DNA of 64,000 bases from an uncultured Sphingomonas sp. (GTDB lineage: Bacteria > Pseudomonadota > Alphaproteobacteria > Sphingomonadales > Sphingomonadaceae), in NCBI RefSeq assembly GCF_937871615.1, contig NZ_CALMPA010000046.1, positions 310,001-374,000 of the forward strand, in the 5' to 3' direction. This document shows, one piece after another, positions 43,917 to 62,581 of this stretch (positions are counted from its first letter, which is position 1; each line of letters opens with the position of its first letter). The translations under genes and the position numbers were made by a program. The notes beneath the pieces were generated by a model. The model made no database searches and was not told where the DNA came from. It saw only the letters and a list, made by a program, of their open reading frames with translations.

Positions 43917-43949
43917 GGCGGCGATAGGTGAGACCGCGTTTGTCGGCCC

Positions 43950-44032: not shown

Positions 44033-44039
44033 TGCGCCT

Positions 44040-46214
44040 TCAGAACTCCTTGCGGAGGCCGAAGGTGATGGTCCGCGGGTCGTTAAGCCCGCCAACCTGA
44101 CCCAGGCCAAGCGGACTGCCGAAGCTGAAGGTCCGATAGACCTCCTTGGTAAGATTGGCCCCGTTTATGAAGAGGCTGACGCGCGCAGGCTCATAGGTGA
44201 GTTGCAGGCGCGCGCTCATCAGATTGGAAGGAAGGCTCCAGTTGTCGCCGGGCGCGGAGGCCGGCTGGTGCAGCATCGATTCCGAGTGCACCCATTGGCC
44301 GAAGCCGGAGAAGGTAAAGTCGTCCGACAGCGGCACGCTGAAACGCGTCCCCAGGGTGGAGGTGAAGCGCGGCGCACGCTGCATCCGCTCACCGTTTGCC
44401 AGCTTGGCCTCCGGGTTCCAGGAGAAGTTGCCATAAGCGGTCAGCGCGGAACTGAGCTTGAACTGGCCCTCCGCTTCGACCCCGGTGCTTTTCGCGTTAA
44501 GCGAGCGGACCTGGAATGCGCGCGCAGCCGAATTGTAGAAGCTGTCCTGAAAATCCTTGATGTCCATGTGGTACACGGCCATCGACAGATAGGCGCGCCC
44601 ATCGAGGAAGCGGCCCTTGAACCCCGCCTCATAGGTCGTCACGCGCTCCACCGGCACAACGAATGTCGTCGGCCACCGATCGGCGAGTGCCGCCTGATTG
44701 ACGAAGCCCGAACCCTTGTTGCCTTGCCCGACCGATACATAAAGCGTCGAGGCGGCGGTGGGATTGTAGCTGAGCGTGCCGGAGAAATCGAAGGTGGTGT
44801 CGCGTACCTTGGCCTGATGGAAAGGCCCGTTGCCGAGCAATGCGACAAGCCCGGTCGGGTGACCGAGATCGTCGATCAGGAACTTCTGGTAATCGGCATC
44901 CTTCTTGTCGCTCGTCAGACGACCGCCAAGGTTCAGTTGCAGGTTGCTGGCCATATGCCATGTGGCCTGCCCGAACCCGGCGAAGGTGTTCTCATATTGA
45001 TTGAAACGCTGTGACACGGTGCCGAACAGCCCGCCGAGGACCGGGAAATTATTGTAATAGCTCAGATAATTATAGTGCGTTATTGAATGCAGATAGAATC
45101 CGCCCAGGATGAACTCCACCGCTTTTCCGGTTGGCGAAGTCAGGCGGATTTCTTGCGTAACCTGCCGGAAATTCTCGTTGAAACGCGAAAAGAGGAGCGG
45201 CGCGGGGGTTGAATCCGAATCGAACCCGTTCGTGAAATCGTATCTGGAATAACCCGATGTCGCGGTGAGCGAATAATCGTTGCCCAGATCGAGCTTCACC
45301 TCGAGCGAATGATCCTGACTTTTCTGATAGTCGTTCGGATCACCCGCGGCACCGGCGCTCTCGTATTTCATGTAATTATGAAGGCCGCCGTCGGCCACGC
45401 CAAGCGCCTGAAGTGCCGCGACGTTCTGGTTGGCGATGAACTCGAAATTGTTGCCGATCATGTTGAGCCGGCTGAACTGGCTCTTGGCCCGCACAGATAC
45501 GCCGGCAACGGGATTCCATTCCGCGATGCCCCGGATCACATAGCGATCGCCCGAAGGCTCGTCGCGGTTCTTGGTGACGTTATGGACGAAGCCTTCCTGA
45601 TTGTCGTACATCCCCGCGATACGCACCTTGAAGGTGTCGCTGGGAACAACGTCGAGCGCCCCTTCGAGGCCATAACTGCCGTAATTCGCCTCGACCTGGC
45701 CCTGAACATAGCCGCCGGTCCGATCGCCGGGGCCGCGCGAAATAATGCTGACCGCGCCGACGCTCGTGTTCTTGCCGAACAGCACGCCCTGGCTACCCTT
45801 GACAACCTCGACGCGCGCGACATCGAAAAGCGCGTCGCGATACTGGCGCGCGCGGGGATGGTACACGCCATCGACGAACAGGCCGACCGACTGCTCGAAC
45901 ACCTGGCTGCCTGCCGAGGTGCCGATGCCACGGACGGTGACGCCGCTGAAGCCGCCGGGGGATTCGTCCATGCTGAGCCCTGGCACGCTAGCGGCGAGAT
46001 TCTTGATTTCGATCGCGCCCATCGAGGCGATCTGATCGCCGCTGACCACGTTGATGGTCATCGGCGTCTTCTCAAGCTTGGTTTCGCGCTTCTGGGCGGT
46101 GACGACGATTTCGCCGAGCGCGTTGGAATCTTTGGTATCCGAGCCGGCTTGTGCCAGCGCTGGCGTCGCGCTGATCGCAACACCCGAGCACAGAATCGCG
46201 AATAGCTTCCTCAA
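44040..46214 (-). CDS. TonB-dependent outer-membrane receptor
   Basis: Imports a substrate through the outer membrane using TonB energy. 724 residues: signal peptide MRKLFAILCSGVAISATPALA, a TonB-box-like EIVVTAQKRE, plug domain (VSGDQIASMGAIEIKNLAASVPG, and VTVRGIGTSAG), then a 22-strand barrel ending ...ITFGLRKEF with the terminal Phe. GGGAGGG with 5-nt spacing supports a TTG start. The absence of siderophore genes and the neighbouring catabolic genes suggest uptake of a hydrophobic or aromatic nutrient. Two palindromes lie upstream. Confidence 0.93.
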   Translation of the reverse strand: MRKLFAILCSGVAISATPALAQAGSDTKDSNALGEIVVTAQKRETKLEKTPMTINVVSGDQIASMGAIEIKNLAASVPGLSMDESPGGFSGVTVRGIGTSAGSQVFEQSVGLFVDGVYHPRARQYRDALFDVARVEVVKGSQGVLFGKNTSVGAVSIISRGPGDRTGGYVQGQVEANYGSYGLEGALDVVPSDTFKVRIAGMYDNQEGFVHNVTKNRDEPSGDRYVIRGIAEWNPVAGVSVRAKSQFSRLNMIGNNFEFIANQNVAALQALGVADGGLHNYMKYESAGAAGDPNDYQKSQDHSLEVKLDLGNDYSLTATSGYSRYDFTNGFDSDSTPAPLLFSRFNENFRQVTQEIRLTSPTGKAVEFILGGFYLHSITHYNYLSYYNNFPVLGGLFGTVSQRFNQYENTFAGFGQATWHMASNLQLNLGGRLTSDKKDADYQKFLIDDLGHPTGLVALLGNGPFHQAKVRDTTFDFSGTLSYNPTAASTLYVSVGQGNKGSGFVNQAALADRWPTTFVVPVERVTTYEAGFKGRFLDGRAYLSMAVYHMDIKDFQDSFYNSAARAFQVRSLNAKSTGVEAEGQFKLSSALTAYGNFSWNPEAKLANGERMQRAPRFTSTLGTRFSVPLSDDFTFSGFGQWVHSESMLHQPASAPGDNWSLPSNLMSARLQLTYEPARVSLFINGANLTKEVYRTFSFGSPLGLGQVGGLNDPRTITFGLRKEF

Positions 46215-46251
46215 GGCTTCCCTCCCCTAAATTGTTCCGCCAGATGCCGGC

Positions 46252-46268
46252 ATTCCGCTGATCGGAAT
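46252..46268. promoter_or_regulatory. Palindrome upstream of the TonB receptor gene
   Basis: ATTCCG-CTGAT-CGGAAT, a perfect 6+5+6 inverted repeat about 40 nt before the receptor start codon. A plausible operator for a local regulator; binding partner unknown. Confidence 0.5.
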
Positions 46269-46360
46269 TTGCCGCCCCTGGGGGTTCCGCACGCCATTTT
46301 GTTTTAGCCGCAACGGGCGCGGTAAGGTGCCATTAGCCGTTCGACGGGGTAAGAGAAGCC

Positions 46361-46377
46361 AGACGGCCTTGCCGTCT
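46361..46377. repeat. Perfect 7-bp hairpin in the receptor upstream region
   Basis: AGACGGC-CTT-GCCGTCT. It lies about 150 nt before the receptor start. It may be part of the 5' untranslated region or mark an upstream terminator; no T-run follows on the minus strand. The rest of the roughly 300-nt gap shows no other gene-like signal. Confidence 0.45.
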
Positions 46378-46476
46378 TGAGAAGGTAGGTTTCTTTACAA
46401 TCGGCGGCGCGATCCCGCTACTGCAAGCAACGTGCTTTTGCGATGATTTCAGCGCGCTCGAATGCGCTTGTGAACA

Positions 46477-46504
46477 GGATGGGTGCCGATAGTCGCACCC
46501 ATCC
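46477..46504 (-). terminator. Perfect 10-bp hairpin after the alpha/beta hydrolase gene
   Basis: GGATGGGTGC pairs exactly with GCACCCATCC across an 8-nt loop, 10 nt past the hydrolase stop. The following bases (TGTTCACAAG) do not form a T-run. Probably a transcript end or processing signal before the TonB receptor gene. Confidence 0.6.
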
Positions 46505-46514
46505 CGTTCGGCCG

Positions 46515-47666
46515 TTACGCGAGCAGGTCGTTTTCGGTCAGCCAGGTCCGGATCGTCTGGGCAGCCTGCTGCGCCAGTTCGGGTTGGTCCTGATAATAAT
46601 GGGTCGCGCCCTTGATATGGACGAGCTTCTTTCGATCGTGCGCAACCGCGTCGAACAGACGCTGAGAATGGCTGGGTGTGCAGGCGTCATCGGCGGTGTT
46701 GTTCATGACGAGGACGGGCTTCGAAACCGTGGCGAGGCTGCGCAGGCCATCGGCATTGGCGTCGCTATGGCTCCATTGCGACAGCCAGCTACGCAGGGTG
46801 GAAAAGCGGGCGAGGCCGACCGGGCTCATGTTCACGATGCGGGGATCGCCCATGTAGCACCAGTTCGCCTTGCGGTCGTTCGGGTCGATGGCGGGATCGA
46901 GCCAGCGCGGATCGGCCATCGTGCCGTGCGTGGCGAAGGCGAATTCCTCATTCTCCCGACCGGTCGCCCGCAGATGGGCGAGCTTTTCTTTCACCCAGGC
47001 GGTGATCCGGTGATTCCGCGCGAGTTGCGCCGCGCGGTAACGCTCGATGAACTCGGGCGTGTAGGGCGGTTTCACGAGATCGCCGTACAGATCGAGTTCG
47101 GGATCGCGGATATCCGGGTTCGCCTCGTCGAGGATCGACGCGTCGATCCACTCGGTAAGTGTGCCGTGCCGCGAAACGTGCGCCGCGATCTCGATCACGC
47201 CGTCTCCGGGGATCAGCCCCGCCTTGGTCAGATCGGGGCCGCCGCCGCCCGGACTGTCTGTAACCGTGGGGTTTTCGGCCTGGGCCTGATAGAAGGCCGA
47301 GAGCGATCCACCACCGCTCCAGCCAAGCATGATGACCTTTTTGTAGCCGAGCTTTTCGCGCGCGTAACGAACCGCCGCGCCCAGATCGAGCGCGACCTTT
47401 TCCATGATGAGCGCATAATCGACACCGCGATACCGGCTATCCATCGCCAGCACATGCAGGCCGGCTTCGGCGAGCCGCGGCATGACCGGAACGCCCTGCG
47501 TTCCACCGATCGGATGCATCGTCAGCAGCACCGTGTCGGACGGATTGCCGTCGGTGAAATGCATACCGCCGATCGCGACAACGCCAACGTCGCCGCCGTA
47601 CGTGTCCTTGAAGATCGCTTCTTCCCGCCAGATGATCCGTACGGGCGTGCGTGTGATGCGGGCCAT
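46515..47666 (-). CDS. Alpha/beta hydrolase, 383 residues
   Basis: Serine hydrolase with nucleophile elbow MLGWSGGGS, late Asp in NNTADDACTP and His in KGATHYYQ. No signal peptide, so cytoplasmic. A large cap insertion lies between residues 150 and 300. AAGGACATC precedes the ATG. It is transcribed towards the TonB receptor and may be co-expressed with it. In the island context it could cleave an ester or a C-C bond of a ring-opened intermediate (as HsaD-type enzymes do), but the primary sequence does not prove which. Confidence 0.85.
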   Translation of the reverse strand: MARITRTPVRIIWREEAIFKDTYGGDVGVVAIGGMHFTDGNPSDTVLLTMHPIGGTQGVPVMPRLAEAGLHVLAMDSRYRGVDYALIMEKVALDLGAAVRYAREKLGYKKVIMLGWSGGGSLSAFYQAQAENPTVTDSPGGGGPDLTKAGLIPGDGVIEIAAHVSRHGTLTEWIDASILDEANPDIRDPELDLYGDLVKPPYTPEFIERYRAAQLARNHRITAWVKEKLAHLRATGRENEEFAFATHGTMADPRWLDPAIDPNDRKANWCYMGDPRIVNMSPVGLARFSTLRSWLSQWSHSDANADGLRSLATVSKPVLVMNNTADDACTPSHSQRLFDAVAHDRKKLVHIKGATHYYQDQPELAQQAAQTIRTWLTENDLLA

Positions 47667-48062
47667 AATCAGATGTCCTTAGTTCAGATGCGCCGCCCGG
47701 AATGACGGTGCGGCGGAAAGTTGTCGATTTCGGAATGAACGGTATCGCGGTGCGGGGCGCTTGCGGCGAAGGCGCATGGGTCGATCGGCCTCCTGGCATG
47801 AAGCGCGGTCATCCTCTCGCATCAGGCGACTATCGAAATCGGGTGAGGGCATGTCCATTCTTGCCTCGACAATGCTGCGTTGCCGTTCCTGGCTCCCTGC
47901 GGAGGAAGTCCACCCACTTAGCCACCGTCACCGATTAATGTAAAGTAACTTGACTAAATTGGCGAGGCGAGGCTAGCCACCCGAAAGGCGCCGGCCTGTT
48001 GCGATCGCACCGTCCATGACGGCGCGAGGCGCGGGATGGGGGCGTATGTCAGGAGAGCGCTC
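47667..48062. other. Divergent intergenic region of the hydrolase and P450 genes
   Basis: About 400 nt without a supported gene. Most is GC-rich like coding DNA, but it has no frame with a start and coding bias. The one distinct element is an AT-rich island GATTAATGTAAAGTAACTTG at 47933-47952 with a small palindrome AAGT-A-ACTT. It loosely resembles the AT-rich MarR site before the flavin monooxygenase gene (GATTAAT...ACTTAAC). This is the likely promoter/operator zone for the P450 gene. Confidence 0.4.
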
Positions 48063-49286
48063 ATGCAGATCGAACCGCGATTCAATCTGATCGACCCATC
48101 TACATTCAGCCGCGGCCATCCCCATGAGGCCTATGACTGGTTACGCGAGCATTCGCCGGTCTGGCGCCATCCCGGCTCCGCGCGTCAGCCCGAGTTCTGG
48201 GCGCTCACCCGCTTTGAGGATATTCGCGCGGTCTCGCTCGACGGGGCGAATTTCACCTCAACGCGCGGGTTCCGCATCCCCACCGACATATTCGCCGGGC
48301 TGAACCCTGAAATCGGGCGCATCATCTCTCGGTTCATGCTCGCGATGGACAACCCCGAGCATCAGGAGTTTCGCGCCATCGTAAGTTCCGCCTTCATGCC
48401 GGCGGCGATCGCGCGGGCGGAGCCACGGATCAAGGCATCGGTGGACGCTCTTATCAGCGGCCTGCGCGGGCAAGACCTTGTCGATGTCGTCCCCGATGTC
48501 GCCGCGCTCGTCCCGATCAAGACGATCTGTGCGATCATGGGGGTGCCGGAGGAGGATGAATGGCGCGTCTTCCAGTTCACCAACGCGGTATTTGGTGCCG
48601 ACGACCCCGATTTCACGCCGAACACCGACCTCGCCAACGAACGCTACCTGGAGATATTCGATTACGCCTGGCATCTGTTCGAGGCGCGCCGGCGGGAGCC
48701 GCGCGACGATTTGCTGACCCGTATTGCGCACGCGACCGTCGCCGGTCGATCGCTGACCCCGGACGAGCAGAAAAGTTTCTTCTCGAACCTGATCGCGGCC
48801 GGCAATGAGACGACGCGCAGTTCGCTTGCCGGCGCGATCTGGGCGCTCGCGCTTCACCCCGATCAGCGCCGCGTGTTGCTCGATCAGCCGGAGCTTCTAC
48901 AATCGTCCTTGCCGGAATTGCTGCGCTGGTTCGGCCCGGTGATACAGATGTCGCGCACCGCCATACGCGATGTCGAGGTGGGGGGCGTGCGGATCGAGAC
49001 CGGCGAGCGGGTGGCGATGCTCTATGCCGCGGGAAATCGCGATCCGGCGGTCTTTGCCGATCCCCACCGGCTCGATCTGCGCCGGGAAGGAGCCGCCGGC
49101 CACCTGACGTTCGGCTATGGCGTTCATCATTGCCTCGGCTCGCGGCTCGCGCTGCTGCAGCTGCGCTTGATTTTGTCGGCGTTCCTCGCGGAGTTTCCGG
49201 GCTATGAACTGGCAGGCGAGCCAACCTATTTGCGCTCGAACCTCGTCCGCGCCATGAAAACCCTGCCGATCCGCCTCGCGGCCTGA
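48063..49286 (+). CDS. Cytochrome P450
   Basis: Soluble bacterial P450, 407 residues, inserting one oxygen atom into a substrate. Signatures: I-helix AAGNETTRS, ELLRW (ExxR), and heme loop FGYGVHHCLGSRLA with the Cys thiolate. The sequence style (FNLIDPSTFSRGHPHEAYDWLREHSPVWRH) resembles CYP families of mycobacteria and sphingomonads acting on terpenoid or steroid-like substrates. AGGAGAGCG sets the ATG. No ferredoxin or reductase gene accompanies it, so it must borrow redox partners encoded elsewhere. Convergent with a MarR gene. Confidence 0.93.
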   Translation: MQIEPRFNLIDPSTFSRGHPHEAYDWLREHSPVWRHPGSARQPEFWALTRFEDIRAVSLDGANFTSTRGFRIPTDIFAGLNPEIGRIISRFMLAMDNPEHQEFRAIVSSAFMPAAIARAEPRIKASVDALISGLRGQDLVDVVPDVAALVPIKTICAIMGVPEEDEWRVFQFTNAVFGADDPDFTPNTDLANERYLEIFDYAWHLFEARRREPRDDLLTRIAHATVAGRSLTPDEQKSFFSNLIAAGNETTRSSLAGAIWALALHPDQRRVLLDQPELLQSSLPELLRWFGPVIQMSRTAIRDVEVGGVRIETGERVAMLYAAGNRDPAVFADPHRLDLRREGAAGHLTFGYGVHHCLGSRLALLQLRLILSAFLAEFPGYELAGEPTYLRSNLVRAMKTLPIRLAA

Positions 49287-49304
49287 ACGGGCGGCAGGCT
49301 GGGG

Positions 49305-49787
49305 TCAGCGCTTTCCAATCCGGATAGCCGCGCCGGTGCGCTCGACGGTCGGGATTTCGCCCCAGTCCGACGCGAGCGAGCGCTTCAGGCTGTCGAGCAG
49401 CCGTTGGCCGAGGCGTTTGCCAAGATCCTGTTCAACCAGATCGAGGATCCTGAGCGCGTCGCTGCGGATCGCCTCGGAATCAGCGCTGAACTCCACGATC
49501 TGCGCGCGCCGATCGTTCGGATCGGGGCGAAATTCGATCAGCCCCTTCACCTTCATCTCCTTCAGGAACTGGCTCATCGCCGCGCGTGACACGCCCATGT
49601 TCCGGGCGATGTCGGAGGCCTTGTGGACGCCGTTGGCGACATGGACGAGGATAAGGCATTGCGAGCGGGAAACGGCGGGCCAGCCCAGCCCCACCAGGTT
49701 GCGATTCAGCGCGTCATCCAGCCAGTAATAATGCCGCAGCATATCCATCAGCAGGAAACTCGGCTGAGGCGCCTTTTGGTCGGGCAT
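49305..49787 (-). CDS. MarR family regulator of the catabolic island
   Basis: 160-residue winged-helix regulator: HKASDIARNMGVSRAAMSQFLKEMKVKGLIEF (HTH) and wing PDPNDRRAQ. It stands between the P450 gene and the divergent flavin monooxygenase gene, and a palindrome overlaps the monooxygenase promoter. It probably represses that gene, and perhaps the P450, in the absence of a pathway intermediate. The start MPDQKAPQPSF is chosen because the longer frame upstream would cross the operator. Confidence 0.88.
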   Translation of the reverse strand: MPDQKAPQPSFLLMDMLRHYYWLDDALNRNLVGLGWPAVSRSQCLILVHVANGVHKASDIARNMGVSRAAMSQFLKEMKVKGLIEFRPDPNDRRAQIVEFSADSEAIRSDALRILDLVEQDLGKRLGQRLLDSLKRSLASDWGEIPTVERTGAAIRIGKR

Positions 49788-49979
49788 TCTGATACGCTTC
49801 TCCGTGAAGGCCGGGCAGGCCGGATGCGACGCGCCGACCCTAGAGGATAGTCGCCTCTCGAAAAAGTGCCGCCGACTCGCGTTGCGACCGCGCGCCAATT
49901 CGACTGCAACAAAATATCTATCATTATGGATTTCAATACAAAAGTTTGCGTTGCGAGTGAGGGTTTGAGCGATTAATAT

Positions 49980-49994
49980 GTTAATATACTTAAC
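49980..49994. promoter_or_regulatory. Palindromic operator upstream of the first flavin monooxygenase
   Basis: GTTAA-TATAC-TTAAC, a perfect 5+5+5 inverted repeat in an AT-rich segment, 12 nt before the ATG at 50007. It lies in the divergent gap to the MarR gene and is the best candidate MarR operator. Confidence 0.65.
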
Positions 49995-50006
49995 AATGGA
50001 GAGCAT

Positions 50007-51257
50007 ATGTCGGTGGCGAATGTCGCGGTGAAGTGGGCAGACCGCAGGATTCCGCAGGGCGGAGGCTATCTGGGCGATGGGGAATTGGCCGCGCTGACCC
50101 CGGCCGCGCTGTGCGAGCGGGTGCGGGCGCTTCAGCCGCTCATCGCCGAACACGCCGCCGAGGCGGAACGGTTGCGGCGTCCGCATGACGCGGTGTGGGC
50201 GGCGCTGCGCGAGTGCGGCTTCTTCTACCAGTTCGTGCCGAAGGAGTTCGGCGGGATGGAGAGCGATTTCGACACGTTCATTGATGTCGGCATGGCGATC
50301 GCGGAGGTTGACGCCTCAACCGCCTGGACGGCGACCTTCTGTGCCGAGCACAACTGGATTTTCACGCACTTCCCCGTCGAGACGCAGCGCGAACTATGGG
50401 CGGGCGAATTTCCCTATATCATCGCCCCGGTGGTTTCGGTGCCCCCCGGCAAGGCTGTGGAGGTGGAGGGCGGATACCGCGTTTCCGCCCACTGGAAATG
50501 GGGAACCGGGGTGATGCACGCCGATTGGGTGATGGGCAATGCGCTGCTGATGCGCGAGGGGCACCCACCTGAAATGATGATCGTTGCCATTCCGGCCGAT
50601 CAGGTCGAAGTGCTCGATACGTGGAACGCCTGCGGCATGGCGGGAACCGGCAGCAACGATATCGTGGTGAAGGATGTGTTCGTGCCGCGCCGTTTCGCCG
50701 CGCTGGGCGTCGCGCGTGGCGGCTCGGCGCCCGCGCAACGACATCACGCAAATCCGATTTACGGCGTTCCGATGCTGCCGTTTCTCGCCATGTCGGCGGC
50801 GATCCCGGCGGCTGGCGCGGCGCGCGGCATGGTGAACCTCTTTCGCGAACGGATGGCCGCGTTCGCGCGTCCGGGCGCAGAGAGCGCGATGGCGGAGAAG
50901 GCGCCGCCGCAAATCCGGCTGGCGCGCGCGGATATGCTGGCACGCAGCGCGGAAATCCTCATCCGCGAGGCCGGGCGCCGGTTGCTGGATGTGCCCGCGC
51001 TGGCGGAGCCGCAGCGCACCAACGAGCGGCTCGCGTTGCGTGCCCAGATCGCGCAGGCGGTTATTCTTTGTCGCGACGCCGCGATGACGTTGGTGGAGGG
51101 CGCCGGCACCAGCATCCTGCTTCTTGATCAGCCCTTCCAGCGGGCGATGCGCGATATCCTCGTCGTATCCTCTCACATCGTGTTCGATATCGACATCGCG
51201 ATGGAGCAGCATGGACGCGGGCTGCTCGGCCTGGCGCCCAACACGCCGCTTAACTGA
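50007..51257 (+). CDS. Acyl-CoA dehydrogenase-fold flavin monooxygenase (HsaA-like)
   Basis: 416 residues with the acyl-CoA dehydrogenase fold of group-D flavin monooxygenases. These use reduced flavin from a partner reductase to hydroxylate aromatic or heteroaromatic substrates. Marks: ASTAWTATFCAEHNWIF, WKWGTGVMHADWVM and AGTGSNDIVVKDVFVP, typical of HsaA/HpaB-like enzymes, and no acyl-CoA dehydrogenase catalytic Glu. No flavin reductase is encoded close by. GGAGAGC lies in front of the ATG, with the palindrome overlapping the promoter. A related gene lies near 61 kb. Confidence 0.88.
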   Translation: MSVANVAVKWADRRIPQGGGYLGDGELAALTPAALCERVRALQPLIAEHAAEAERLRRPHDAVWAALRECGFFYQFVPKEFGGMESDFDTFIDVGMAIAEVDASTAWTATFCAEHNWIFTHFPVETQRELWAGEFPYIIAPVVSVPPGKAVEVEGGYRVSAHWKWGTGVMHADWVMGNALLMREGHPPEMMIVAIPADQVEVLDTWNACGMAGTGSNDIVVKDVFVPRRFAALGVARGGSAPAQRHHANPIYGVPMLPFLAMSAAIPAAGAARGMVNLFRERMAAFARPGAESAMAEKAPPQIRLARADMLARSAEILIREAGRRLLDVPALAEPQRTNERLALRAQIAQAVILCRDAAMTLVEGAGTSILLLDQPFQRAMRDILVVSSHIVFDIDIAMEQHGRGLLGLAPNTPLN

Positions 51258-51457
51258 CGGCTGGAGGCTCCTTGGCGATTTTCGGGTGGCGGGCATCCGA
51301 AACGGGGAACCCTGCGTTCCCCAATCGGCAAGGAGGCATCTCTTTTCCTGCCGGTCCAGGCGGCTATCAGCCTGAACCCACAATCACGGGGGCAGGATGA
51401 TGGCCGCGCCTGAACCGGCGTGAGGCGTGACCCGCCGCTCGCCTGAAGGAGAGGATG

Positions 51458-53973: not shown

Positions 53974-54001
53974 ACGGCATGTTTGGAATGGAGTGCAATC
54001 T

Positions 54002-55528: not shown

Positions 55529-55539
55529 GGGCGCGAGGC

Positions 55540-56166: not shown

Positions 56167-56236
56167 CGGCGTGTCCTGCCACAACCACCGCGGAGGGGCC
56201 ATAATCGCATTTGACTTACCGGGCGGAAAGCGCCTA

Positions 56237-56254
56237 ACTTTCCGAATGGAAAGT
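56237..56254. promoter_or_regulatory. Perfect palindromic operator in the TetR-VOC gap
   Basis: ACTTTCC-GAAT-GGAAAGT. A symmetric 18-bp site between divergent genes, the expected place and form for the adjacent TetR regulator. Confidence 0.75.
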
Positions 56255-56325
56255 GTGCCATGATTGCCGAGCGCATCGACGTTCACCACGCCGAAGCCAG
56301 GCCGCCTATTCCGAAGGAACCTCAG

Positions 56326-57024
56326 ATGACCCAACCTGCCGGACTGCACCACGTCGCGATCTCCACCAGCAACATGAAGGCGCAGATCGAGTTTTTTTCC
56401 GATGTTCTGGGGATGGAACTGGTCGCCCTCTACTGGATGCACGGCGCAAAGGGATGCTGGCACGGCTTCATGCGAATGATCGACGACAGTTGCGTCGCTT
56501 TCGTGTTCGCGCCGGGCAACGAGAATCTTGCGCCGCAGATCGGGGTCACCCACGCCGGCCATGGTGCCGGGGCCTCCGCGCCGGGCACCATGCAGCATCT
56601 CGCGCTGAACGTGGCGACCATGGCGGACCTGCTCAACATGCGTGACCGGATTCGTTCGCGTGGGGTGAATGTGATCGGCCCGCTCGATCACGGGATTTGC
56701 CAATCCATGTATTTCGCCGGCCCGGAAAATCTGACGCTGGAGATCGCCACGTCGGACGGCGCATCGGCGCCGCTCGATCTCGACCGGACGTGGATCGACC
56801 CAGAGGTCGTCGCGCTTGCCGGCATCAGCGCGGAGGAACTCGCGCGCTATACCAGGCCGGAAAAATATGCCGGGGAAAACGGATCGCTTCCGCAGCCGCC
56901 TTACGATCCGGCCAAGCCGCATACGAGCGGCCCGGTGGATCGTTACAAGGCGACGCTTGCGATCCCCGACGATGTATTCAAGGCGCGCTTCAGCGAGACG
57001 ACGCCGCCGCATCCCCACGCCTGA
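56326..57024 (+). CDS. VOC-fold (glyoxalase/bleomycin resistance/dioxygenase) protein
   Basis: 232 residues. The VOC paired beta-alpha-beta fold uses one metal: likely ligands are His in LHHVAIST, His in MQHLALNV and Glu in LTLEIATSD, the two-His/one-carboxylate set. It may be an extradiol-type dioxygenase or a lyase/epimerase. The C-terminal 75 residues (Pro-rich, GPVDRYKATLAIP) are an unusual extension. AAGGAACC precedes the ATG. In the island it fits ring cleavage after hydroxylation by the flavin monooxygenases, but this is inference. Confidence 0.85.
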   Translation: MTQPAGLHHVAISTSNMKAQIEFFSDVLGMELVALYWMHGAKGCWHGFMRMIDDSCVAFVFAPGNENLAPQIGVTHAGHGAGASAPGTMQHLALNVATMADLLNMRDRIRSRGVNVIGPLDHGICQSMYFAGPENLTLEIATSDGASAPLDLDRTWIDPEVVALAGISAEELARYTRPEKYAGENGSLPQPPYDPAKPHTSGPVDRYKATLAIPDDVFKARFSETTPPHPHA

Positions 57025-57036
57025 TCGGGCCGGCCG

Positions 57037-57067
57037 GAGCCGAATTCGGCCACGCCGGATTCGGCTC
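57037..57067. terminator. Bidirectional hairpin between the VOC and LysR genes
   Basis: GAGCCGAAT and ATTCGGCTC pair perfectly (9 bp, 13-nt loop), immediately next to the LysR stop codon. The site is in the convergent gap and may end both transcripts. Confidence 0.65.
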
Positions 57068-57996
57068 TATTCCGTCAGGTGCTTGATAAGCAGGCGCGCC
57101 GCCGCTGATATCTGGCCCTTTGACCGGAAGCACAATTGCAGCGGTCGTTTCGCCCAACTGTCGGTCAGCGGGCGAACCACAAGGTTTTGCTGTTCGGCGA
57201 AGGGCAGCACCGCGGTCGCCGGCAATATCGACACGCCCAGGCCCGCCGCGACACAGGCACGGACGCTTTCGAAGCTCGTGGCGTGGACGCGCTCCAGCAT
57301 CATGCGATTCAGCGCGATCGCATGAGAGCGATAGAGCGTCAGCAAGGCGCTGTCGTGCTGCATCCCGACAAATGGCTCATCCAGCATCTCCGCCAGCGAT
57401 AGCTCTGCGCGCGCGGCAAGGGGCGAGCCCGGCGGCAGGATCGCGACCAGTTCGTCCCCGGCAAGGGGCAAGGATTCCAGGCTGCGCACATCCATGGTGC
57501 CCGAAATCAGGCCGACATCGCACAGGCCAGCCTGGATATCGTGGATGATCTCGATGCTCTTGCCTTCTTCGAGGATGATGTCGATCGAAGGGTTGGCGCG
57601 CAGAAAATCGGCCAGCTTCGCGGGAAGCCCCGCCATCATCGAAGATATGTGCGCCTGAATCCGGATCACGCCGGCCACGCCATCGCGCCGGTCGATCAGT
57701 TCACCGGCAACCTGTTCCAACTGGCCGATGATCCCCATCAGCCGATCGAGAAATTGCGTTCCGTCAGGGGTTGCGGAAACACCGCGATCGTGCCGGTTGA
57801 AAACCGCAAATCCGTAACGCTGCTCAAAGTCCGCGATCCTGCGGCTGACCGCGGAAATGGCGATGTTCTCACGCTCGGCGACGCGCGCCAGATTTCCTTC
57901 TTCGCGCGCTGCCAGCAGGATGCGCAAGGTCAGGAGATCAATCCCGTTCAGGAGATTGGTGGGCCTGCGCAAACCTGCATTCCGTGGCGAACTCAT
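57067..57996 (-). CDS. LysR family regulator
   Basis: 309 residues. N-terminal HTH (NLARVAERENIAISAVSRRIADFEQRYGFAVFNRHDRG) and a periplasmic-binding-protein-like effector domain. It starts MSSPRNAGLRRPTNLL. Divergent from the enoyl-CoA hydratase gene across about 280 nt, so it may activate the hydratase-SDR-WrbA genes. LysR activators commonly sense pathway intermediates. No clear T-N11-A motif was confirmed in the gap by eye. Confidence 0.9.
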   Translation of the reverse strand: MSSPRNAGLRRPTNLLNGIDLLTLRILLAAREEGNLARVAERENIAISAVSRRIADFEQRYGFAVFNRHDRGVSATPDGTQFLDRLMGIIGQLEQVAGELIDRRDGVAGVIRIQAHISSMMAGLPAKLADFLRANPSIDIILEEGKSIEIIHDIQAGLCDVGLISGTMDVRSLESLPLAGDELVAILPPGSPLAARAELSLAEMLDEPFVGMQHDSALLTLYRSHAIALNRMMLERVHATSFESVRACVAAGLGVSILPATAVLPFAEQQNLVVRPLTDSWAKRPLQLCFRSKGQISAAARLLIKHLTE

Positions 57997-58277
57997 AAGG
58001 CGTCTTACCGATCCTGAAGGAACCGGGAACGAGATCCCTACCCCGCGACGCGGATAACCAGACTTTCCACTTGGCACAATGCGGTCTAGAGGCACGGAAA
58101 GGCGGGCCGGCAAACCTGAATTCGCGGAAAGCGAATGGATGTGCCGGGCGGCGGCTCCTACCCTTGGTCACCCATGGAGCGGGGAGGGCGGGTCATCCCC
58201 GCACGCGCCCTGTCGACGGGATGCCGTCCATCCGCCGCCCGATCCTCACCCCTGTTCCCAATGAGAGGGATTGCGCG

Positions 58278-59075
58278 ATGGCCGAAGTGTTGACGATCGA
58301 AAGCCGTGGGCCGGTCGACTGGATCACGCTCAACCGGCCCGATCGGCTGAATGCGCTGGACGATCAACTCACCACCGAACTGCGCGAATATTTCGAACGC
58401 CAATATCGCAATTCCGATTGCAGGGTGATCGTTCTGCGCGGTGAAGGGCGCGGCTTCTGTGCCGGGCTCGACCTCGACAGCGAACAGTGCCGCAGCTTTG
58501 CCGAGGACGGCATTCCGGCGGCTCTCGATGTGCAGCGCAACATTCGGGATATCATGATCGCCATGCGGCGCTGCCCGCAGCCGATCGTGGCGATGATGCA
58601 CGGCGCTTCGGTGGGGGGCGGCTTCGTCCTCGCTTTGGCGTCCGACATCCGCATCGCGGCGATCGGCACCCGCATGAACGCGGCGTTCATCAAGATCGGG
58701 CTGGGGGGCTGCGACGTTGGCGCGAGCTATCTTCTGCCGCGCCTGATCGGCGCGTCGGCGGCGGCCGAAATCCTGTTCACCGGGCTCGATCTGCCTGCCG
58801 ATCGCGCCTTCGCGCTGGGGCTGATCTCGCGCCTCGTTCCGCCCGAACAGCTTGAGGAAAGCGCGCAGGAACTGGTCGAGGCGATGCTGGCCACCGCGCC
58901 GATGGGGCTGCGGCTGACCAAGCAATGCTTCAACGCAAACCTCGATGCGCCGAGCCTGGAGGCCGCGGTGGCGCTTGAGGATCGGAACCAGGTGCTGCTC
59001 GGCCAGACCCGCGATTTCCGGGAGGGCGTCGCCGCGTTCAAGGAGCGGCGCGCCTCGTCATTCGTCGGGCGATGA
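58278..59075 (+). CDS. Enoyl-CoA hydratase/isomerase family protein
   Basis: 265 residues of crotonase fold. It hydrates an enoyl-CoA or isomerises or hydrolyses a CoA ester. LNRPDRLNALDD, GEGRGFCAGLDLD (oxyanion loop), HGASVGGGFVLALASDIRIA and AFIKIGLGGCDVGASYLLPRLIG are visible. The canonical catalytic Glu pair of hydratases is not both evident: the second position reads GGCDVGAS, so a different crotonase reaction is possible. GAGAGGG precedes the ATG. The SDR gene follows after about 115 nt. Confidence 0.9.
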   Translation: MAEVLTIESRGPVDWITLNRPDRLNALDDQLTTELREYFERQYRNSDCRVIVLRGEGRGFCAGLDLDSEQCRSFAEDGIPAALDVQRNIRDIMIAMRRCPQPIVAMMHGASVGGGFVLALASDIRIAAIGTRMNAAFIKIGLGGCDVGASYLLPRLIGASAAAEILFTGLDLPADRAFALGLISRLVPPEQLEESAQELVEAMLATAPMGLRLTKQCFNANLDAPSLEAAVALEDRNQVLLGQTRDFREGVAAFKERRASSFVGR

Positions 59076-59191
59076 TCGACCCGACACGCGGAGCGAAGGC
59101 TCGGTTCCACTTTCAACAATGGACAGCTCAGCGGCGCCCGAGGGAGACGCAGCGGCTCACAAGCGCATCAACGCAATGCACGGGTAACAGC

Positions 59192-59965
59192 ATGAACGGT
59201 AATGAAAAAGAACTGGCGGGGCGCGTCATATTGATAACCGGCGCGTCGTCCGGCGTCGGCAAGCATCTTGCGCTGATGCTGGCGCAGCGCGGTGCGGCGG
59301 TGGCGTGCTGCGCCCGCCGGGTCGACAAGCTCCATGATCTTGTCACGCAGATCATGGCTCAAGGCGGGAGCGCGTGCGCGGTGCCGTGCGACGTTACCGA
59401 TCATCAATCCATCGTCGGCGCCTTTGCGGTCGCCGAGGAGCGGCTCGGTCCGATCGACAGCGTGATCTGCAACGCGGGGATCAACCATGCGGGGCCGGCG
59501 ATCAAGCTTTCGGCGGAGAGCCTCGACGCGATCCTGTCCGTCAACCTGCGGGGAGCTTTTCTGACCGCGCAGGAAGGCGCGCGCCGAATCATCGCAAACG
59601 ATATCGCCGCAACCAGGCGACGCGTAATATTCGTCGCGTCGATCCTCGGCACCAAGCCGCTGGCCGGTGCGGCTGTTTATGGCGCGACGAAGGCGGGCGT
59701 CATCCTCATGGCCAAAACCCTGGCGCTGGAATGGGCCAGGCGCGGCATCACCGTGAACACGATCTGCCCAGGCTTCATGCCCACCGAGATCATCGACGAT
59801 TGGTTCGAAACGCCCGGCGGCAAGGCCGATATGGCGCGCTGGCCGAACAAGGATTTCATGCCGGTCGAGAAGCTCGACCCGGCAATTCTGTTCCTGCTTT
59901 CCGAGGCGAGCGCGTCGATCACCGGAAATGCGATCATCGTGGATGAAGGCCAGTCGCTGGCTTGA
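59192..59965 (+). CDS. Short-chain dehydrogenase/reductase
   Basis: 257 residues. NAD(P)-binding TGASSGVGKH, NAG in VICNAGINHAG, catalytic Ser in FVASILG and Tyr/Lys in YGATKAG, all present. The C-terminal TGNAIIVDEGQSLA is the standard ending. It fits a 3-hydroxyacyl-CoA or cyclic-alcohol dehydrogenase step of the pathway. The upstream ribosome site is weak. Substrate unknown. WrbA follows after 27 nt. Confidence 0.92.
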   Translation: MNGNEKELAGRVILITGASSGVGKHLALMLAQRGAAVACCARRVDKLHDLVTQIMAQGGSACAVPCDVTDHQSIVGAFAVAEERLGPIDSVICNAGINHAGPAIKLSAESLDAILSVNLRGAFLTAQEGARRIIANDIAATRRRVIFVASILGTKPLAGAAVYGATKAGVILMAKTLALEWARRGITVNTICPGFMPTEIIDDWFETPGGKADMARWPNKDFMPVEKLDPAILFLLSEASASITGNAIIVDEGQSLA

Positions 59966-59992
59966 ACGACGCAATCCAACTGGGGAGGGGAA

Positions 59993-60592
59993 ATGACCAA
60001 GGTTCTGGTGCTATATTATTCGAGTTACGGCCACATCCAACAGATGGCGCAGGCGGTGGCGAAGGGCGCGCGCGAGGCGGGGGCCGAAGTGGATATCAAA
60101 CGCGCGCCCGAAACCGTTGCGGAGGAAGTGGCGCGGGCGAGCTTCTACAAGCTCGATCAGGCGGCCGAAATCGCGCGGATTGATGATCTGGTTGCCTATG
60201 ACGCCATCATCATTGGGACGGGAACGCGATTTGGCCGGATATCCTCACAGATGGCCGCCTTCCTCGATCAAGCCGGACGGCTCTGGGCAACGGGCGCGTT
60301 GATCGGCAAGGTCGGCGCGGCATTCACGTCCGCCGGGAGTCAGCACGGCGGGCAGGAAACCACTTTGTTCTCGCTCATCACCAACATGCTGCACTTCGGC
60401 ATGACGATCGTCGGGCTGGATTACGGTTTCGCCGGGCAGATGGGCGACGATACGATCCGGGGCGGCGCGCCTTATGGGGCGACGACGCTGGCCGGATCGA
60501 CCGGCGCGCGCCAGCCCGACGAGAACGATCTCGCCGGGGCGGCTTATCTCGGCGCGCGGGTGGCGCGGACGGCGGCAAAGCTCCGCGCCTGA
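59993..60592 (+). CDS. wrbA: NAD(P)H:quinone oxidoreductase WrbA
   Basis: 199-residue flavodoxin-like FMN enzyme reducing quinones by two electrons to avoid radical cycling. [12 protein letters not shown] (FMN phosphate loop), [27 protein letters not shown] and [11 protein letters not shown] are the family motifs. GGGGAGGGGAA upstream is a strong ribosome site. Placed with two aromatic monooxygenases, it probably handles quinones formed from hydroxylated intermediates. A perfect hairpin closes the transcript. Confidence 0.95.
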
Positions 60593-60607
60593 GCCGATCA
60601 TGATGGG

Positions 60608-60648
60608 GGAGAAACTGTCGCAAGCGATCGGCCGGCAATAGTTTCTCC
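60608..60648. terminator. Bidirectional hairpin between wrbA and the second flavin monooxygenase
   Basis: GGAGAAACT and AGTTTCTCC pair perfectly (9 bp) around a 23-nt loop, in a convergent gap. Transcript end for both sides is likely; no long T-run. Confidence 0.6.
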
Positions 60649-60670
60649 GATATTCAGGGCGCGCCCTTCG

Positions 60671-61825
60671 TCAGACGAGCGGATGATTGGGCTGGAGGCC
60701 AAGCCGGTGCCGCCCGACCAGTTCGCGCGTCGCGTCCCAATCCCAGAAGGCGTGGGAGCAGACCGTGTTCAGATCGCGCCAGAAGCGTTGCAGCGGCTGA
60801 TCGAGGTGGAAGGATGAGGCGCCAGCACTCGCCATCACCGCGTTCACCGTATCGCGGCAATGGCGCGACAGGAAAGCCAGTTTCGCCTTGAGCGCCAGCC
60901 GGTCGTCAAGCGTGAATGGCCGGGTGCCGATGATCTTTGTGGTGGTGTCGATCACCTGGGCGGCAAGGCTGTGCGCGATGTCAGCGGCGATGCGAAATTC
61001 ACCGAGCATGACGTGCGCATGTTGCTGATCCTTCACTACGGCCCCGGTATAGTTGCGCACGCGGCGTGCGACGATCGCTTCATATGCATCGACCGCGCCG
61101 AGCAGGCCGCCAGACAGCACGCCGACGACGGTGCAATAGGCCAGCGGCAGGACCGGCACTGAGTAAAGCGGGTTCTCATGCTGCGCGGAGCCCTCGGTGC
61201 GCCCGCCGCCGAACGCGATCCCGTTGATCGCGCGATATTCGGGGACGAACACCTTATCCACGACAATGTCGTTGCTGCCTGTCCCCGCCATGCCGGCGAA
61301 ATGCCATACGTCGCCCACCGAAACGTCGCTGGCCGGGAGCATGAAGGAATATGGCCCTTCCTCCGTCCGCCCGCTCACGAAGGCCCAGTCGGCATTCATG
61401 ATCCCCGATCCCCACGAAGCGCGGCCAGAGAGTTCCCAGCCGCCATCGACCCGGTGCGCGCTCATCGTCGGCGCATTGGCGCCTGGCATCAGGCAGAAGC
61501 CGCGCGGGCCGTACACTTCCTGCTGCAACCGGATATCCAGCTTTGCTGGATAGACGTTGTGATTGATGTAGAAGGAACTGATCCACCCTGTTGAAATGCA
61601 GGCGGAACTGATCTGTTCGACGACCGCGAACATGGTGGGAAGATCGGATTCCAGCCCGCCCCATCGGCGCGGCGCGAGCATCGCCATGATCTCCGCCTCG
61701 ATCAGATCCTCGATCGTTTCATCGAGCGGGCGGCGGGCGGATTCGGTCGCCGGCGCGCGTTCCGCGATGATCGGTTTCAGCGCCCTGGCGCGTTCGATGA
61801 GTTGTTCGTTGGTCGCCGCCACCAT
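60671..61825 (-). CDS. Acyl-CoA dehydrogenase-fold flavin monooxygenase (second HsaA-like paralogue)
   Basis: 384 residues, related to the gene near 50 kb by motif: RASWGSGIMNADWAFVSGR, GTGSNDIVVDKVFVP and a C-terminal FHLDQPLQRFWRDLNTV. It also lacks an acyl-CoA dehydrogenase Glu. The reduced-flavin partner is not encoded nearby. AGGAG lies just upstream of the ATG. Divergent from a TetR gene with a palindromic operator. Two enzymes of the same family suggest two separate hydroxylations or two substrates. Confidence 0.86.
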   Translation of the reverse strand: MVAATNEQLIERARALKPIIAERAPATESARRPLDETIEDLIEAEIMAMLAPRRWGGLESDLPTMFAVVEQISSACISTGWISSFYINHNVYPAKLDIRLQQEVYGPRGFCLMPGANAPTMSAHRVDGGWELSGRASWGSGIMNADWAFVSGRTEEGPYSFMLPASDVSVGDVWHFAGMAGTGSNDIVVDKVFVPEYRAINGIAFGGGRTEGSAQHENPLYSVPVLPLAYCTVVGVLSGGLLGAVDAYEAIVARRVRNYTGAVVKDQQHAHVMLGEFRIAADIAHSLAAQVIDTTTKIIGTRPFTLDDRLALKAKLAFLSRHCRDTVNAVMASAGASSFHLDQPLQRFWRDLNTVCSHAFWDWDATRELVGRHRLGLQPNHPLV

Positions 61826-61859
61826 TCTCTCCTGCGTTTATGGTGAGCGGGCTAAGCAT

Positions 61860-61882
61860 TTAATAGTCACATGTCTAATTAA
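61860..61882. promoter_or_regulatory. Palindromic operator in the monooxygenase-TetR gap
   Basis: TTAATAGTC-ACATG-TCTAATTAA: outer TTAAT/ATTAA arms with a central ACATGT symmetry, in an AT-rich patch of about 35 nt. Placed between divergent promoters, it is the likely binding site of the adjacent TetR protein. Confidence 0.65.
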
Positions 61883-61918
61883 TTTTTGCCTGTTCGGTCG
61901 CGGATGGTAAGGGGGGAT

Positions 61919-62581
61919 ATGCAGGAACCAGCACGCGCCACGAAAAGAAGCCGGGGACGGCCATCGTTGGATGCGGACAGGGCAGTCGACGAGGCCGAAT
62001 GCCTGCGCGCTGCGCTGGATGCATTCGCCGAGCATGGCTTCGAGGGCACGTCGGTACGCGAAGTCGCGCGGACGCTGAACGTGAGCCACGGGCTGCTCAA
62101 CGCGAAGTTCGGATCGAAGCGCGCCTTATGGGAGGCGGCGGTCGATTTCGGCATGGAAACGCTCCACGCGAGCATGTCGCGCCTTCCGTCTCCTGAACAC
62201 GAAAATCCCGATATCGTGCAGCGCCTGCGTGATGCCTGCTGCAACTTCCTCGAAGGTTTAATGGAGGTGCCCGCGCTCGTTCGCCTCATGAACGTCGAGG
62301 GCACGGCCCGAAGCGACCGGCTGGAGCATATCGCGGCGAAATTCTTCCATCGCCGCATCTGGCCTCTGCAAACCCTGCTGCGCGAGGGGCAGGAAGCGGG
62401 GATATTCAGGGAGGTTCATGCGGCGGTGCCCTTCACCCTCCTCGCCCATGGCGCCGGCGCGCTGATCGCGCTGGGTCCATTGATGAATGCGGCGGATGTC
62501 TCGCTGAATGACACCCCGCGCAGCGCAATCGGCAATGCGAAAGAGGCGGCGGAAATCATCGTTCGCGGCCTGCTCCGATAA
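61919..62581 (+). CDS. TetR family regulator
   Basis: 220 residues. Basic arm (ARATKRSRGRPSLDADR), HTH AALDAFAEHGFEGTSVREVARTLNVSHGLLNAKFGSKRALWEAAV, and a helical effector domain. AAGGGGGGAT favours the ATG at 61919 over two earlier in-frame codons. Divergent from the second flavin monooxygenase and probably its repressor. Last gene of the catabolic island; about 180 nt with no recognised gene separate it from trmB. Confidence 0.9.
   Translation: MQEPARATKRSRGRPSLDADRAVDEAECLRAALDAFAEHGFEGTSVREVARTLNVSHGLLNAKFGSKRALWEAAVDFGMETLHASMSRLPSPEHENPDIVQRLRDACCNFLEGLMEVPALVRLMNVEGTARSDRLEHIAAKFFHRRIWPLQTLLREGQEAGIFREVHAAVPFTLLAHGAGALIALGPLMNAADVSLNDTPRSAIGNAKEAAEIIVRGLLR

What the first reader, a model, noticed from the sequence alone, without database searches (positions are those of the whole stretch)
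44040..62581. Catabolic island with uptake, oxygenation, CoA activation and four local regulators
TonB receptor, hydrolase, P450, two HsaA-like flavin monooxygenases, acyl-CoA dehydrogenase, CaiB transferase, AMP ligase, VOC protein, hydratase, SDR and WrbA, interleaved with MarR, TetR, LysR and TetR. The set resembles degradation of a hydrophobic cyclic or aromatic compound such as a terpenoid or steroid-like molecule. I do not recognise the exact combination, and several expected parts are missing (flavin reductase, P450 redox partners, thiolase, ring-hydroxylating Rieske enzyme).
Basis: partly seen in the sequence, partly recalled or inferred. Interest (0 to 1): 0.72.

Follow-up and report, generated by a model that had tools for sequence, protein, structure and literature searches.

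The report
Acquired steroid-type catabolic gene island
A bacterium of the sphingomonad family carries, inserted at one exact spot in its chromosome, a block of 16 genes that looks like the front end of a pathway for taking up and breaking down an oily ring-shaped molecule, probably of the steroid kind; what the molecule is remains unknown.

Summary
The gene list is confirmed: 16 genes in 44040-62581. It is a true island: two relatives have the metallo-hydrolase gene and trmB adjacent. The 18.85-kb insert sits in the 3' end of trmB, with a trmB tail remnant at the left junction, a substitute tail at the right, and TAGGTGA at both; no integrase. Three other sphingomonad genomes carry rearranged versions. 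One matches Caenibius tardaugens, a model steroid degrader, by exact genome length. All four carriers also hold a nine-gene hsa/ipd-type steroid set elsewhere. Most likely a peripheral pathway for a hydrophobic, probably steroid-type substrate. It is neither hsa nor edc: the HsaA cut-off is failed and the P450 is 25% identical to the probable EdcA. The VOC protein probably supplies ring cleavage. A palindrome recurrent in relatives suggests that MarR governs the P450 and HsaA1 promoters; TetR2 looks local. Substrate unproven; four C. tardaugens papers, searched by locus tag, do not mention this cluster. No PF01613 flavin reductase was found in the genome.

The parts
43925..43931 (.). left copy of TAGGTGA; next to it the remnant of the old trmB 3' end (...TYRRLS stop on the minus strand)
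43932..62776 (.). island, absent from G573 and G574
44040..46214 (-). TonB-dependent receptor
   Evidence: PF00593, PF07715; 74% identical in G056 and G185, 32% in G189
46515..47666 (-). alpha/beta hydrolase, 383 aa, GWSGGG nucleophile elbow with Asp and His conserved
47939..47955 (.). operator-like palindrome TGTAAAGTAACTTGACT upstream of the P450
48063..49286 (+). cytochrome P450
49305..49787 (-). MarR regulator
49979..49995. second, weaker operator-like palindrome between MarR and HsaA1 (2 mismatches to the pattern)
50007..51257 (+). HsaA-like flavin-dependent monooxygenase 1
51455..52750 (+). acyl-CoA dehydrogenase
   Evidence: 77% identical in G189
52774..53973 (+). class III (CaiB) CoA-transferase
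   Evidence: 80% identical in G189, 86% in G185
54002..55528 (+). AMP-forming acyl-CoA ligase
   Evidence: 76% identical in G056, 75% in G185
55540..56166 (-). TetR regulator 1
   Evidence: not listed by the gene caller
56237..56254 (.). perfect 7-bp-arm palindrome between TetR1 and VOC (candidate operator, not tested in relatives)
56326..57024 (+). VOC protein, candidate one-domain ring-cleaving dioxygenase
57067..57996 (-). LysR regulator
58120..58136 (.). palindrome between LysR and hydratase (candidate operator, not tested in relatives)
58278..59075 (+). enoyl-CoA hydratase
59192..59965 (+). short-chain dehydrogenase
   Evidence: 58% identical in G189
59993..60592 (+). WrbA NAD(P)H:quinone oxidoreductase
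   Evidence: above cut-off
60671..61825 (-). HsaA-like flavin-dependent monooxygenase 2
61858..61886 (.). palindrome conserved in four HsaA2/TetR2 divergent promoters
61886..62581 (+). TetR regulator 2 (start uncertain: one search puts it at 61967)
   Evidence: 52% in G056, 71% in G189
62777..62783 (.). right copy of TAGGTGA, inside the rebuilt 3' end of trmB

Best explanation
An acquired island of about 18.85 kb inserted into the 3' end of trmB, the way an integrase inserts an element into a gene end, and now without an integrase. It encodes a peripheral (upper) pathway for a hydrophobic polycyclic, most likely steroid-type, compound. Inferred steps: the TonB receptor imports the compound; the P450 oxidises a methyl or other unactivated carbon; ligase and CaiB make the CoA ester; dehydrogenase, hydratase and SDR shorten or modify the acyl part; the two HsaA-like oxygenases hydroxylate rings, with WrbA keeping quinones reduced; the VOC protein with the alpha/beta hydrolase opens a ring. 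The remaining nucleus goes to the hsa/ipd-type steroid genes on another contig. Ferredoxin, reductases and thiolase presumably act in trans. MarR controls the P450 and HsaA1 promoters; TetR1, LysR and TetR2 control their own divergent neighbours. Shown by sequence: the genes, the island, the related clusters, the hsa/ipd-type set, palindromes conserved in relatives. Inferred: every reaction, the substrate class and which regulator binds which palindrome.
For: Empty site in two relatives and a split trmB 3' end. P450 at 57% identity or more in 4 of 249 family genomes, next best 44%; in the three other carriers it is clustered with TonB receptor, HsaA2, MarR, ligase and hydrolase. A nine-gene set read as hsaE-hsaD-hsaA / SDR-hsaC-ipdA-ipdB-echA20-ipdC in 4 of 4 carriers, counting two contigs in G056. 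P450 best PDB sequence matches CYP125 ancestor, CYP124, CYP125. VOC residues H9, H91, Y129 and E139 align with His, His, Tyr and Glu of the biphenyl-diol dioxygenase 1han. Recurrent palindrome: 9, 9, 2 and 7 sites in the relatives' loci L032, L034, L036 and L037 against about 0.5-0.7 expected.
Against: Co-occurrence rests on four genomes, and I had no genome search left for the background frequency of the hsa/ipd set in this family; kstD and kshAB were not searched. The hsaA-, hsaC- and hsaD-like proteins on contig C9 are all below their NCBIfam cut-offs. The C. tardaugens papers that I searched, covering estradiol, testosterone, progesterone and cholate, name other clusters; text searches for tags EGO55_14xxx found only 14520-14525, induced on progesterone. 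Relatives' clusters carry an APH-family kinase with DUF6285 and, in G189, an HMG-CoA lyase, which I do not know from steroid routes. HsaA2 homologues in G453 and G348 lie next to what read, by eye, as protocatechuate and phthalate genes. The cluster palindrome is not clearly enriched at the hsa/ipd loci.
Confidence: 0.45

Rival explanations
1. The island degrades a phenolic or hydroquinone compound with a branched or isoprenoid tail (for example a plant or lignin product or a quinone), unrelated to the steroid genes. The P450 and beta-oxidation genes shorten the tail, HsaA-like enzymes and WrbA handle the phenol/quinone, VOC and hydrolase open the ring.
For: Nearest PDB match of the VOC profile is 9u42 (4.4e-28), titled homogentisate 1,2-dioxygenase from Acinetobacter; MhqO (2.9e-13) and a dichlorohydroquinone dioxygenase (0.00093) also match. 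WrbA is a quinone reductase by family. The best ligase matches in PDB include a feruloyl-CoA synthetase. Carriers have an APH-family kinase with DUF6285 (LvaA-like by recall) and G189 an HMG-CoA lyase.
Against: All four carriers also hold the hsa/ipd-type set. VOC/VOC2 plus hydrolase pairs also sit among genes that read, by eye, as housekeeping, so the pair may have a general role.
Confidence: 0.27
2. The island is a collection of separately regulated modules (P450/HsaA1/CoA genes; VOC; hydratase/SDR/WrbA; HsaA2) with different substrates that happen to sit together.
For: Four divergent regulator/enzyme pairs. The TetR2 palindrome occurs once in the window (44.2 bits, next independent site 14.7). 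The MarR-type palindrome occurs at only two promoters here, no more than chance could give by count (2 against 0.59 expected, largest shuffle 4). HsaA1 of G056 and G185 is only 35-36% identical.
Against: The same families co-occur in three other genomes in different orders, and relatives have the palindrome at many cluster promoters.
Confidence: 0.22
3. A known steroid cluster (edc, hsa/SD, pdc, bsd) in another arrangement.
For: TonB receptor, P450 and a ring-cleaving dioxygenase also occur in the edc cluster.
Against: P450 25% identical to the probable EdcA; edc lies about 145 kb from the homologous cluster in C. tardaugens. HsaA1 and HsaA2 are 27% and 29% identical to the HsaA-like protein on contig C9 of the same genome.
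Confidence: 0.03

Closest known systems
edc estrogen cluster of Caenibius tardaugens (PMC7793797, passages seen)
   Same: TonB receptor, P450 and ring-cleaving dioxygenase in one locus with a TetR gene; no ferredoxin or ferredoxin reductase in the cluster
   Different: P450 25% identical; edc has ChsH2-like, thiolase and HMG-CoA synthase genes; island has two HsaA-like genes, CaiB, alpha/beta hydrolase and WrbA
hsa/ipd-type (SD) steroid genes, present on contig C9 of the same genome (L242)
   Same: both have HsaA-family oxygenases, a candidate extradiol dioxygenase and an alpha/beta hydrolase
   Different: island HsaA1 and HsaA2 27% and 29% identical to the C9 HsaA; none of the 16 island genes reads as HsaE, IpdA or IpdB; island hydratase is 31% identical to the C9 EchA20
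Homologous cluster of C. tardaugens, about 3.020-3.045 Mb (tags about EGO55_142xx-143xx by extrapolation), named in none of the four papers searched
   Same: P450 57%, HsaA2 74%, TetR2 71%, ACAD 77%, CaiB 80%, SDR 58%, hydrolase 55%, WrbA 42%, TonB receptor 32%, MarR and ligase
   Different: has an APH-family kinase, DUF6285, HMG-CoA lyase and a second CaiB; no LysR or VOC match at the limits, hydratase only at 37% further on
iac indole-3-acetate cluster (iacABCDEFGHIR; PMC11630574, passages seen)
   Same: MarR regulator; IacA as an HsaA-type oxygenase is my recall
   Different: no Rieske enzyme here (that iac has one is recall); sequences not compared
9u42, VOC-type homogentisate 1,2-dioxygenase from Acinetobacter
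   Same: same VOC family by profile (E 4.4e-28), shared His, Tyr and Glu positions
   Different: window VOC has a C-terminal extension; activity untested; nothing read about 9u42 beyond its title

Membership tests
HsaA (NCBIfam NF045629, equivalog) | score at or above the curated cut-off of 450 bits | tested here: not met
   HsaA1 208.8 bits, HsaA2 244.8 bits; the HsaA-like protein on contig C9 scores 362, also below
two-component flavin monooxygenase, oxygenase component (HpaH-C2/HsaA/XiaF family) | conserved active-site His and Ser/Thr of the C2 oxygenase | tested here: met
   His120-, Ser171- (Ser or Thr) and His396-equivalents of chain 2jbr conserved; Ser146-equivalent not conserved (residue roles recalled)
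two-component flavin monooxygenase | partner flavin reductase of PF01613 in the genome | tested here: not met
   0 matches in G000 (control 13 of 14 genomes) and with a relative's protein (no control of its own); 8 of 8 relatives searched have one
type I extradiol dioxygenase (VOC) | 2-His-1-Glu metal triad and catalytic Tyr | tested here: met
   H9, H91, Y129, E139 invariant in 14 of 14 aligned VOC/VOC2 proteins and aligned with His, His, Tyr, Glu of 1han; roles recalled
type I extradiol dioxygenase (VOC) | second-sphere catalytic His residues | tested here: inconclusive
   H122 invariant in 14 of 14 but two residues off the His of 1han in the alignment; H76 present in 10 of 11 VOC rows and 0 of 3 VOC2 rows, outside the 1han alignment; its spacing to H91 fits by recall only
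type I extradiol dioxygenase (VOC) | ring-cleaving activity | not testable with these tools
   needs assay; the model also matches epimerases and glyoxalases
CYP125/CYP142 sterol oxidases | family-level identity to a characterised CYP125 | tested here: inconclusive
   best PDB sequence matches are a CYP125 ancestor, CYP124 and CYP125, but no identity was computed
edc estrogen cluster | EdcA-type P450 and edc gene content | tested here: not met
   25% identity to the P450 at the extrapolated edcA position; gene content differs
hsa/ipd-type steroid set (contig C9 of the own genome) | scores above NCBIfam cut-offs | tested here: inconclusive
   EchA20-type PRK08290 (423, cut-off 280) and SDR PRK07856 (340, cut-off 255) pass; HsaA 362/450, HsaC 242/450, HsaD 172/400 do not; ipdA and ipdB matched no model at 1e-30
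iac cluster | iacABCDEFGHI gene set | not tested
   no iac sequences compared
site-specific integrative element | empty site, gene-end target, direct repeat, rebuilt gene end | tested here: met
site-specific integrative element | integrase gene in the element | tested here: not met
   none of the 16 genes is an integrase or transposase

The most novel reading that the evidence does not exclude
The island and its relatives are a proteobacterial P450-initiated route for steroids with an alkyl side chain (sterols or sterol-like triterpenoids), an analogue of the actinobacterial CYP125 route. A 2016 genome survey (PMC4810484, passages seen) relates the inability of Proteobacteria to use cholesterol to the absence of CYP125 and CYP142 orthologues.
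Probability: 0.12. Interest if true: 0.72.

Novelty: new variant of a known kind. Interest (0 to 1): 0.45.

Why it matters
It gives a bounded, testable unit (an 18.85-kb island with a known empty site) and a homologue in a genetically tractable steroid degrader, Caenibius tardaugens, where mutants have been made. If the steroid reading holds, it is a further peripheral steroid route in sphingomonads beside edc, pdc and bsd, and it tests whether Proteobacteria can start sterol side-chain removal with a P450. It also asks how HsaA-type oxygenases are fed with reduced flavin in a genome in which no PF01613 reductase was found.

Tried and rejected
Steroid link first doubted, then revived: the HsaC family search gave 0 of 4 genomes over its cut-off, but reading the neighbourhood of the best own-genome hit showed a nine-gene hsa/ipd-type set.

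Estrogen (edc) identity rejected: the probable EdcA, located by extrapolated position, is 25% identical.

An LvaC-like role for the island ACAD was considered, because its paralogue on contig C8 lies divergent to an APH-family kinase. Not taken up: the best PDB matches are ordinary acyl-CoA dehydrogenases.

Tocopherol/plastoquinone-type substrate: two literature searches gave 2 unrelated papers and 0 papers; no positive evidence; kept only inside rival 1.

Plasmid searches gave only distant single-gene matches, P450 1 record (36%) and HsaA1 6 records (31-36%); their neighbourhoods were not opened. The genome-contig scan gave 79 loci, two of them close; of the rest, a few actinobacterial loci share three or more families at low identity, for example Nocardia L080 and L087 with P450, ligase, ACAD and CaiB at 31-46%. 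Literature: searches returned 0 papers; in the listings I saw no paper on this combination, judging by titles and abstract starts, except the papers that I opened.

Fold search for the hydrolase gave generic lipases and esterases, HsaD at ranks 49-50. Fold search for VOC is weak in TM-score (0.22-0.49 by query length). Promoter and terminator scans were at shuffle level. The codon score was trained on ten of the window's own genes, so it is no independent proof of genes.
Full report
OBSERVATION. My simple gene caller listed 15 of them and missed TetR1. Four regulator genes stand divergent to an enzyme gene: MarR/HsaA1, TetR1/VOC, LysR/hydratase, TetR2/HsaA2. G+C is 0.631 against 0.653 for the window left of the island.

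ISLAND. In two relatives (G574, TrmB 93% identical, and G573, 92%) the metallo-hydrolase gene (window 42744-43916) and trmB are adjacent; window bases 43932-62776 are absent. Three other relatives fetched (G581, G536, G561) lack the hydrolase neighbour; among 19 relatives' trmB loci, 2 have it within 1.5 kb. At the left junction the minus strand still reads ...TYRRLS-stop, the tail of a trmB gene; at the right junction trmB ends ...YFTYRRI-stop, while the empty site of G574 reads ...YFTYRRVN-stop. The shared core at both junctions is TAGGTGA. A left-over tail on one side and a rebuilt tail on the other speak for insertion here rather than loss in the relatives, and are how many tyrosine recombinases act (general knowledge). 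None of the 16 genes is an integrase or transposase and the window has no tRNA gene. HsaA2 is found at E 1e-80 or better in 4 of 396 genomes of the order sample, own included, and in none of the 20 same-genus genomes listed there (372 further genomes without a match are not listed).

RELATED CLUSTERS. The P450 has relatives at 57% identity or more in 4 of 249 genomes of the family sample (own, G056, G185, G189); the next best is 44% (68 of 249 match at E 1e-60 or better). In the three others it lies within a cluster of the same families: TonB receptor, HsaA2 and hydrolase in 3 of 3; MarR and the ligase (75-76% in two, 48-57% in G189, where the gene is cut by my two loci) in 3 of 3; TetR2 in 2 of 3; CaiB in 2 of 3 (80% and 86%; the G056 contig is short); VOC in 2 of 3; HsaA1 in 2 of 3 but at 35-36%; ACAD, SDR and WrbA in G189 only. 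A VOC2 gene lies beside the hydrolase in all three. Gene order differs in each. G189 contig C1 is 4,358,096 bases, the published length of the Novosphingobium (now Caenibius) tardaugens genome (PMC6895838, passages).

STEROID LINK. The own genome holds on contig C9 (8.4 kb) genes that I read as hsaE, hsaD, hsaA, an SDR, hsaC, ipdA, ipdB, echA20 and ipdC. In NCBIfam the SDR (PRK07856, 340 bits, cut-off 255) and echA20 (PRK08290, 423, cut-off 280) pass; HsaA 362 of 450, HsaC 242 of 450 and HsaD 172 of 400 do not, and ipdA and ipdB matched no model at 1e-30. That PRK07856 and PRK08290 are steroid-gene families, and the ipd names, are my recall. The nine genes recur in one block in G185 (67-82% identical) and in G189 (61-78%); in G056 eight lie on one 10.2-kb contig and echA20 on another. 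In C. tardaugens this block coincides with the published SD cluster: anchored at the divergence point, my tag extrapolation puts EdcA and EdcB 12-13 tags below their published numbers (13525, 13570), so it is usable to about that error. kstD and kshAB were not searched. A survey reported 265 putative steroid degraders among over 8,000 genomes, 53 of them Proteobacteria (PMC4810484, passages), so four of four is notable, but I had no genome search left to measure the rate in this family. The homologous cluster in C. tardaugens corresponds to tags about EGO55_142xx-143xx. It is not one of the named clusters edc (13520-13600), SD (13670-13795), pdc (13845-13860), bsd I (16295-16335), bsd II (11460-11480) or igr-like (03105-03125), and the four C. 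tardaugens papers that I searched mention no tag of the 14xxx range except 14520-14525 (supplements not read; PMC8700777 listed but not opened).

ENZYMES. P450: best sequence matches in PDB are an ancestral CYP125, CYP124 and CYP125; it is 25% identical to the P450 at the position of edcA. HsaA1 and HsaA2: nearest PDB relatives HsaA, XiaF and HpaH-C2. Equivalents of C2 His120, Ser171 (Ser or Thr) and His396 are conserved, that of Ser146 is not (roles recalled). They are below the HsaA cut-off and 27% and 29% identical to the C9 protein. VOC: 14 aligned VOC/VOC2 proteins keep H9, H91, H122, Y129 and E139. H9, H91, Y129 and E139 align with His, His, Tyr and Glu of 1han. H122 falls two residues off the nearest His there. 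H76 is kept in 10 of 11 VOC rows and in none of 3 VOC2 rows and lies outside that alignment; that both match catalytic His residues of BphC or XylE is recall. The closest PDB entry is 9u42, titled homogentisate 1,2-dioxygenase from Acinetobacter. The model is of fair quality (pLDDT 81.6), and its fold matches also include epimerases and glyoxalases. Hydrolase: confident model (pLDDT 93), generic lipase/esterase matches. Homologues were found in 44 of 249 family genomes; of the 30 best loci (own included), 19 have a VOC or VOC2 match within about 1.5 kb, one of these partial, which supports a joint role. Some of these pairs sit among genes that I read, by eye, as housekeeping, so the pair is not confined to catabolic clusters.

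COFACTOR SUPPLY. No PF01613 flavin reductase was found in the own genome (control 13 of 14 genomes positive), nor with a relative's protein as query (which had no positive control); all 8 relatives searched have one to four. The own genome is in 71 contigs, so a gap cannot be excluded. Eight ferredoxin-domain places exist. The edc cluster also lacks ferredoxin and ferredoxin reductase genes, and the testosterone paper reports no tesA1 homologue in C. tardaugens and does not exclude unspecific reductases. So the absence of partners in the island does not by itself argue against function.

REGULATION. The HsaA2/TetR2 divergent region keeps a palindrome in four genomes (window, L032, L036, L154; the score was built from these four); in the window it scores 44.2 bits at 61858-61886 and the next independent site 14.7. 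A second palindrome, TGTCAA-N5-TTGACA-like, was noticed at single sites in the window, L032 and L034 and then counted: 9, 9, 2 and 7 sites in L032, L034, L036 and L037 (expected 0.5-0.7; largest of 100 shuffles 4, 2, 4 and 3), two in the island (expected 0.59, largest 4, so not significant alone) and 0 in window 1-43900. Over 19 other loci it gives 0-4 hits against 0.07-0.93 expected, most near expectation; the highest are L211 with 4 and L252 and L248 with 3 each. The island sites lie before the P450 and between MarR and HsaA1, which fits a MarR regulon that is wide in relatives and narrow here. That MarR binds it is inference.

VERDICT. A real inserted catabolic island and one member of a rare sphingomonad cluster family that I saw described in none of the papers listed or opened. 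Kind: new variant of a known kind. The steroid-type assignment is the best single reading at 0.45; the substrate stays open.

Noticed in passing
G000 contig C9, L242:70-8369: Nine-gene steroid-type set (read as hsaE, hsaD, hsaA / SDR, hsaC, ipdA, ipdB, echA20, ipdC) on an 8.4-kb contig outside the window.
   Followed up: yes
G000 whole genome: No PF01613 flavin reductase found although three HsaA-like oxygenases are present; 8 of 8 relatives searched have one.
   Followed up: partly
G000 contig C8, L241:8936-11386: APH-family kinase (43% to the G056 gene) divergent from what looks like a close paralogue of the island acyl-CoA dehydrogenase.
   Followed up: partly
G000 contig C21, L243:2044-16344: Another catabolic-looking cluster, read by eye: CaiB, MarR, HMG-CoA lyase-like, a second hydrolase homologue (37%), enolase-like and TonB receptor genes; a similar-looking set lies in G348 (L155). 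One palindrome of the MarR type lies at L243:19676.
   Followed up: no
L223:11044-12722, L226:9876-11536: VOC2 plus hydrolase pair in what looks like a conserved housekeeping neighbourhood, function unknown.
   Followed up: partly
L224:10670-11251 and L037:7628-8089: VOC2 genes with an internal stop (G111) and an apparent frame change (G189, C. tardaugens); not examined further.
   Followed up: no
L080 and L087: Nocardia loci with P450, ligase, ACAD and CaiB homologues at 31-46% identity in one neighbourhood.
   Followed up: no
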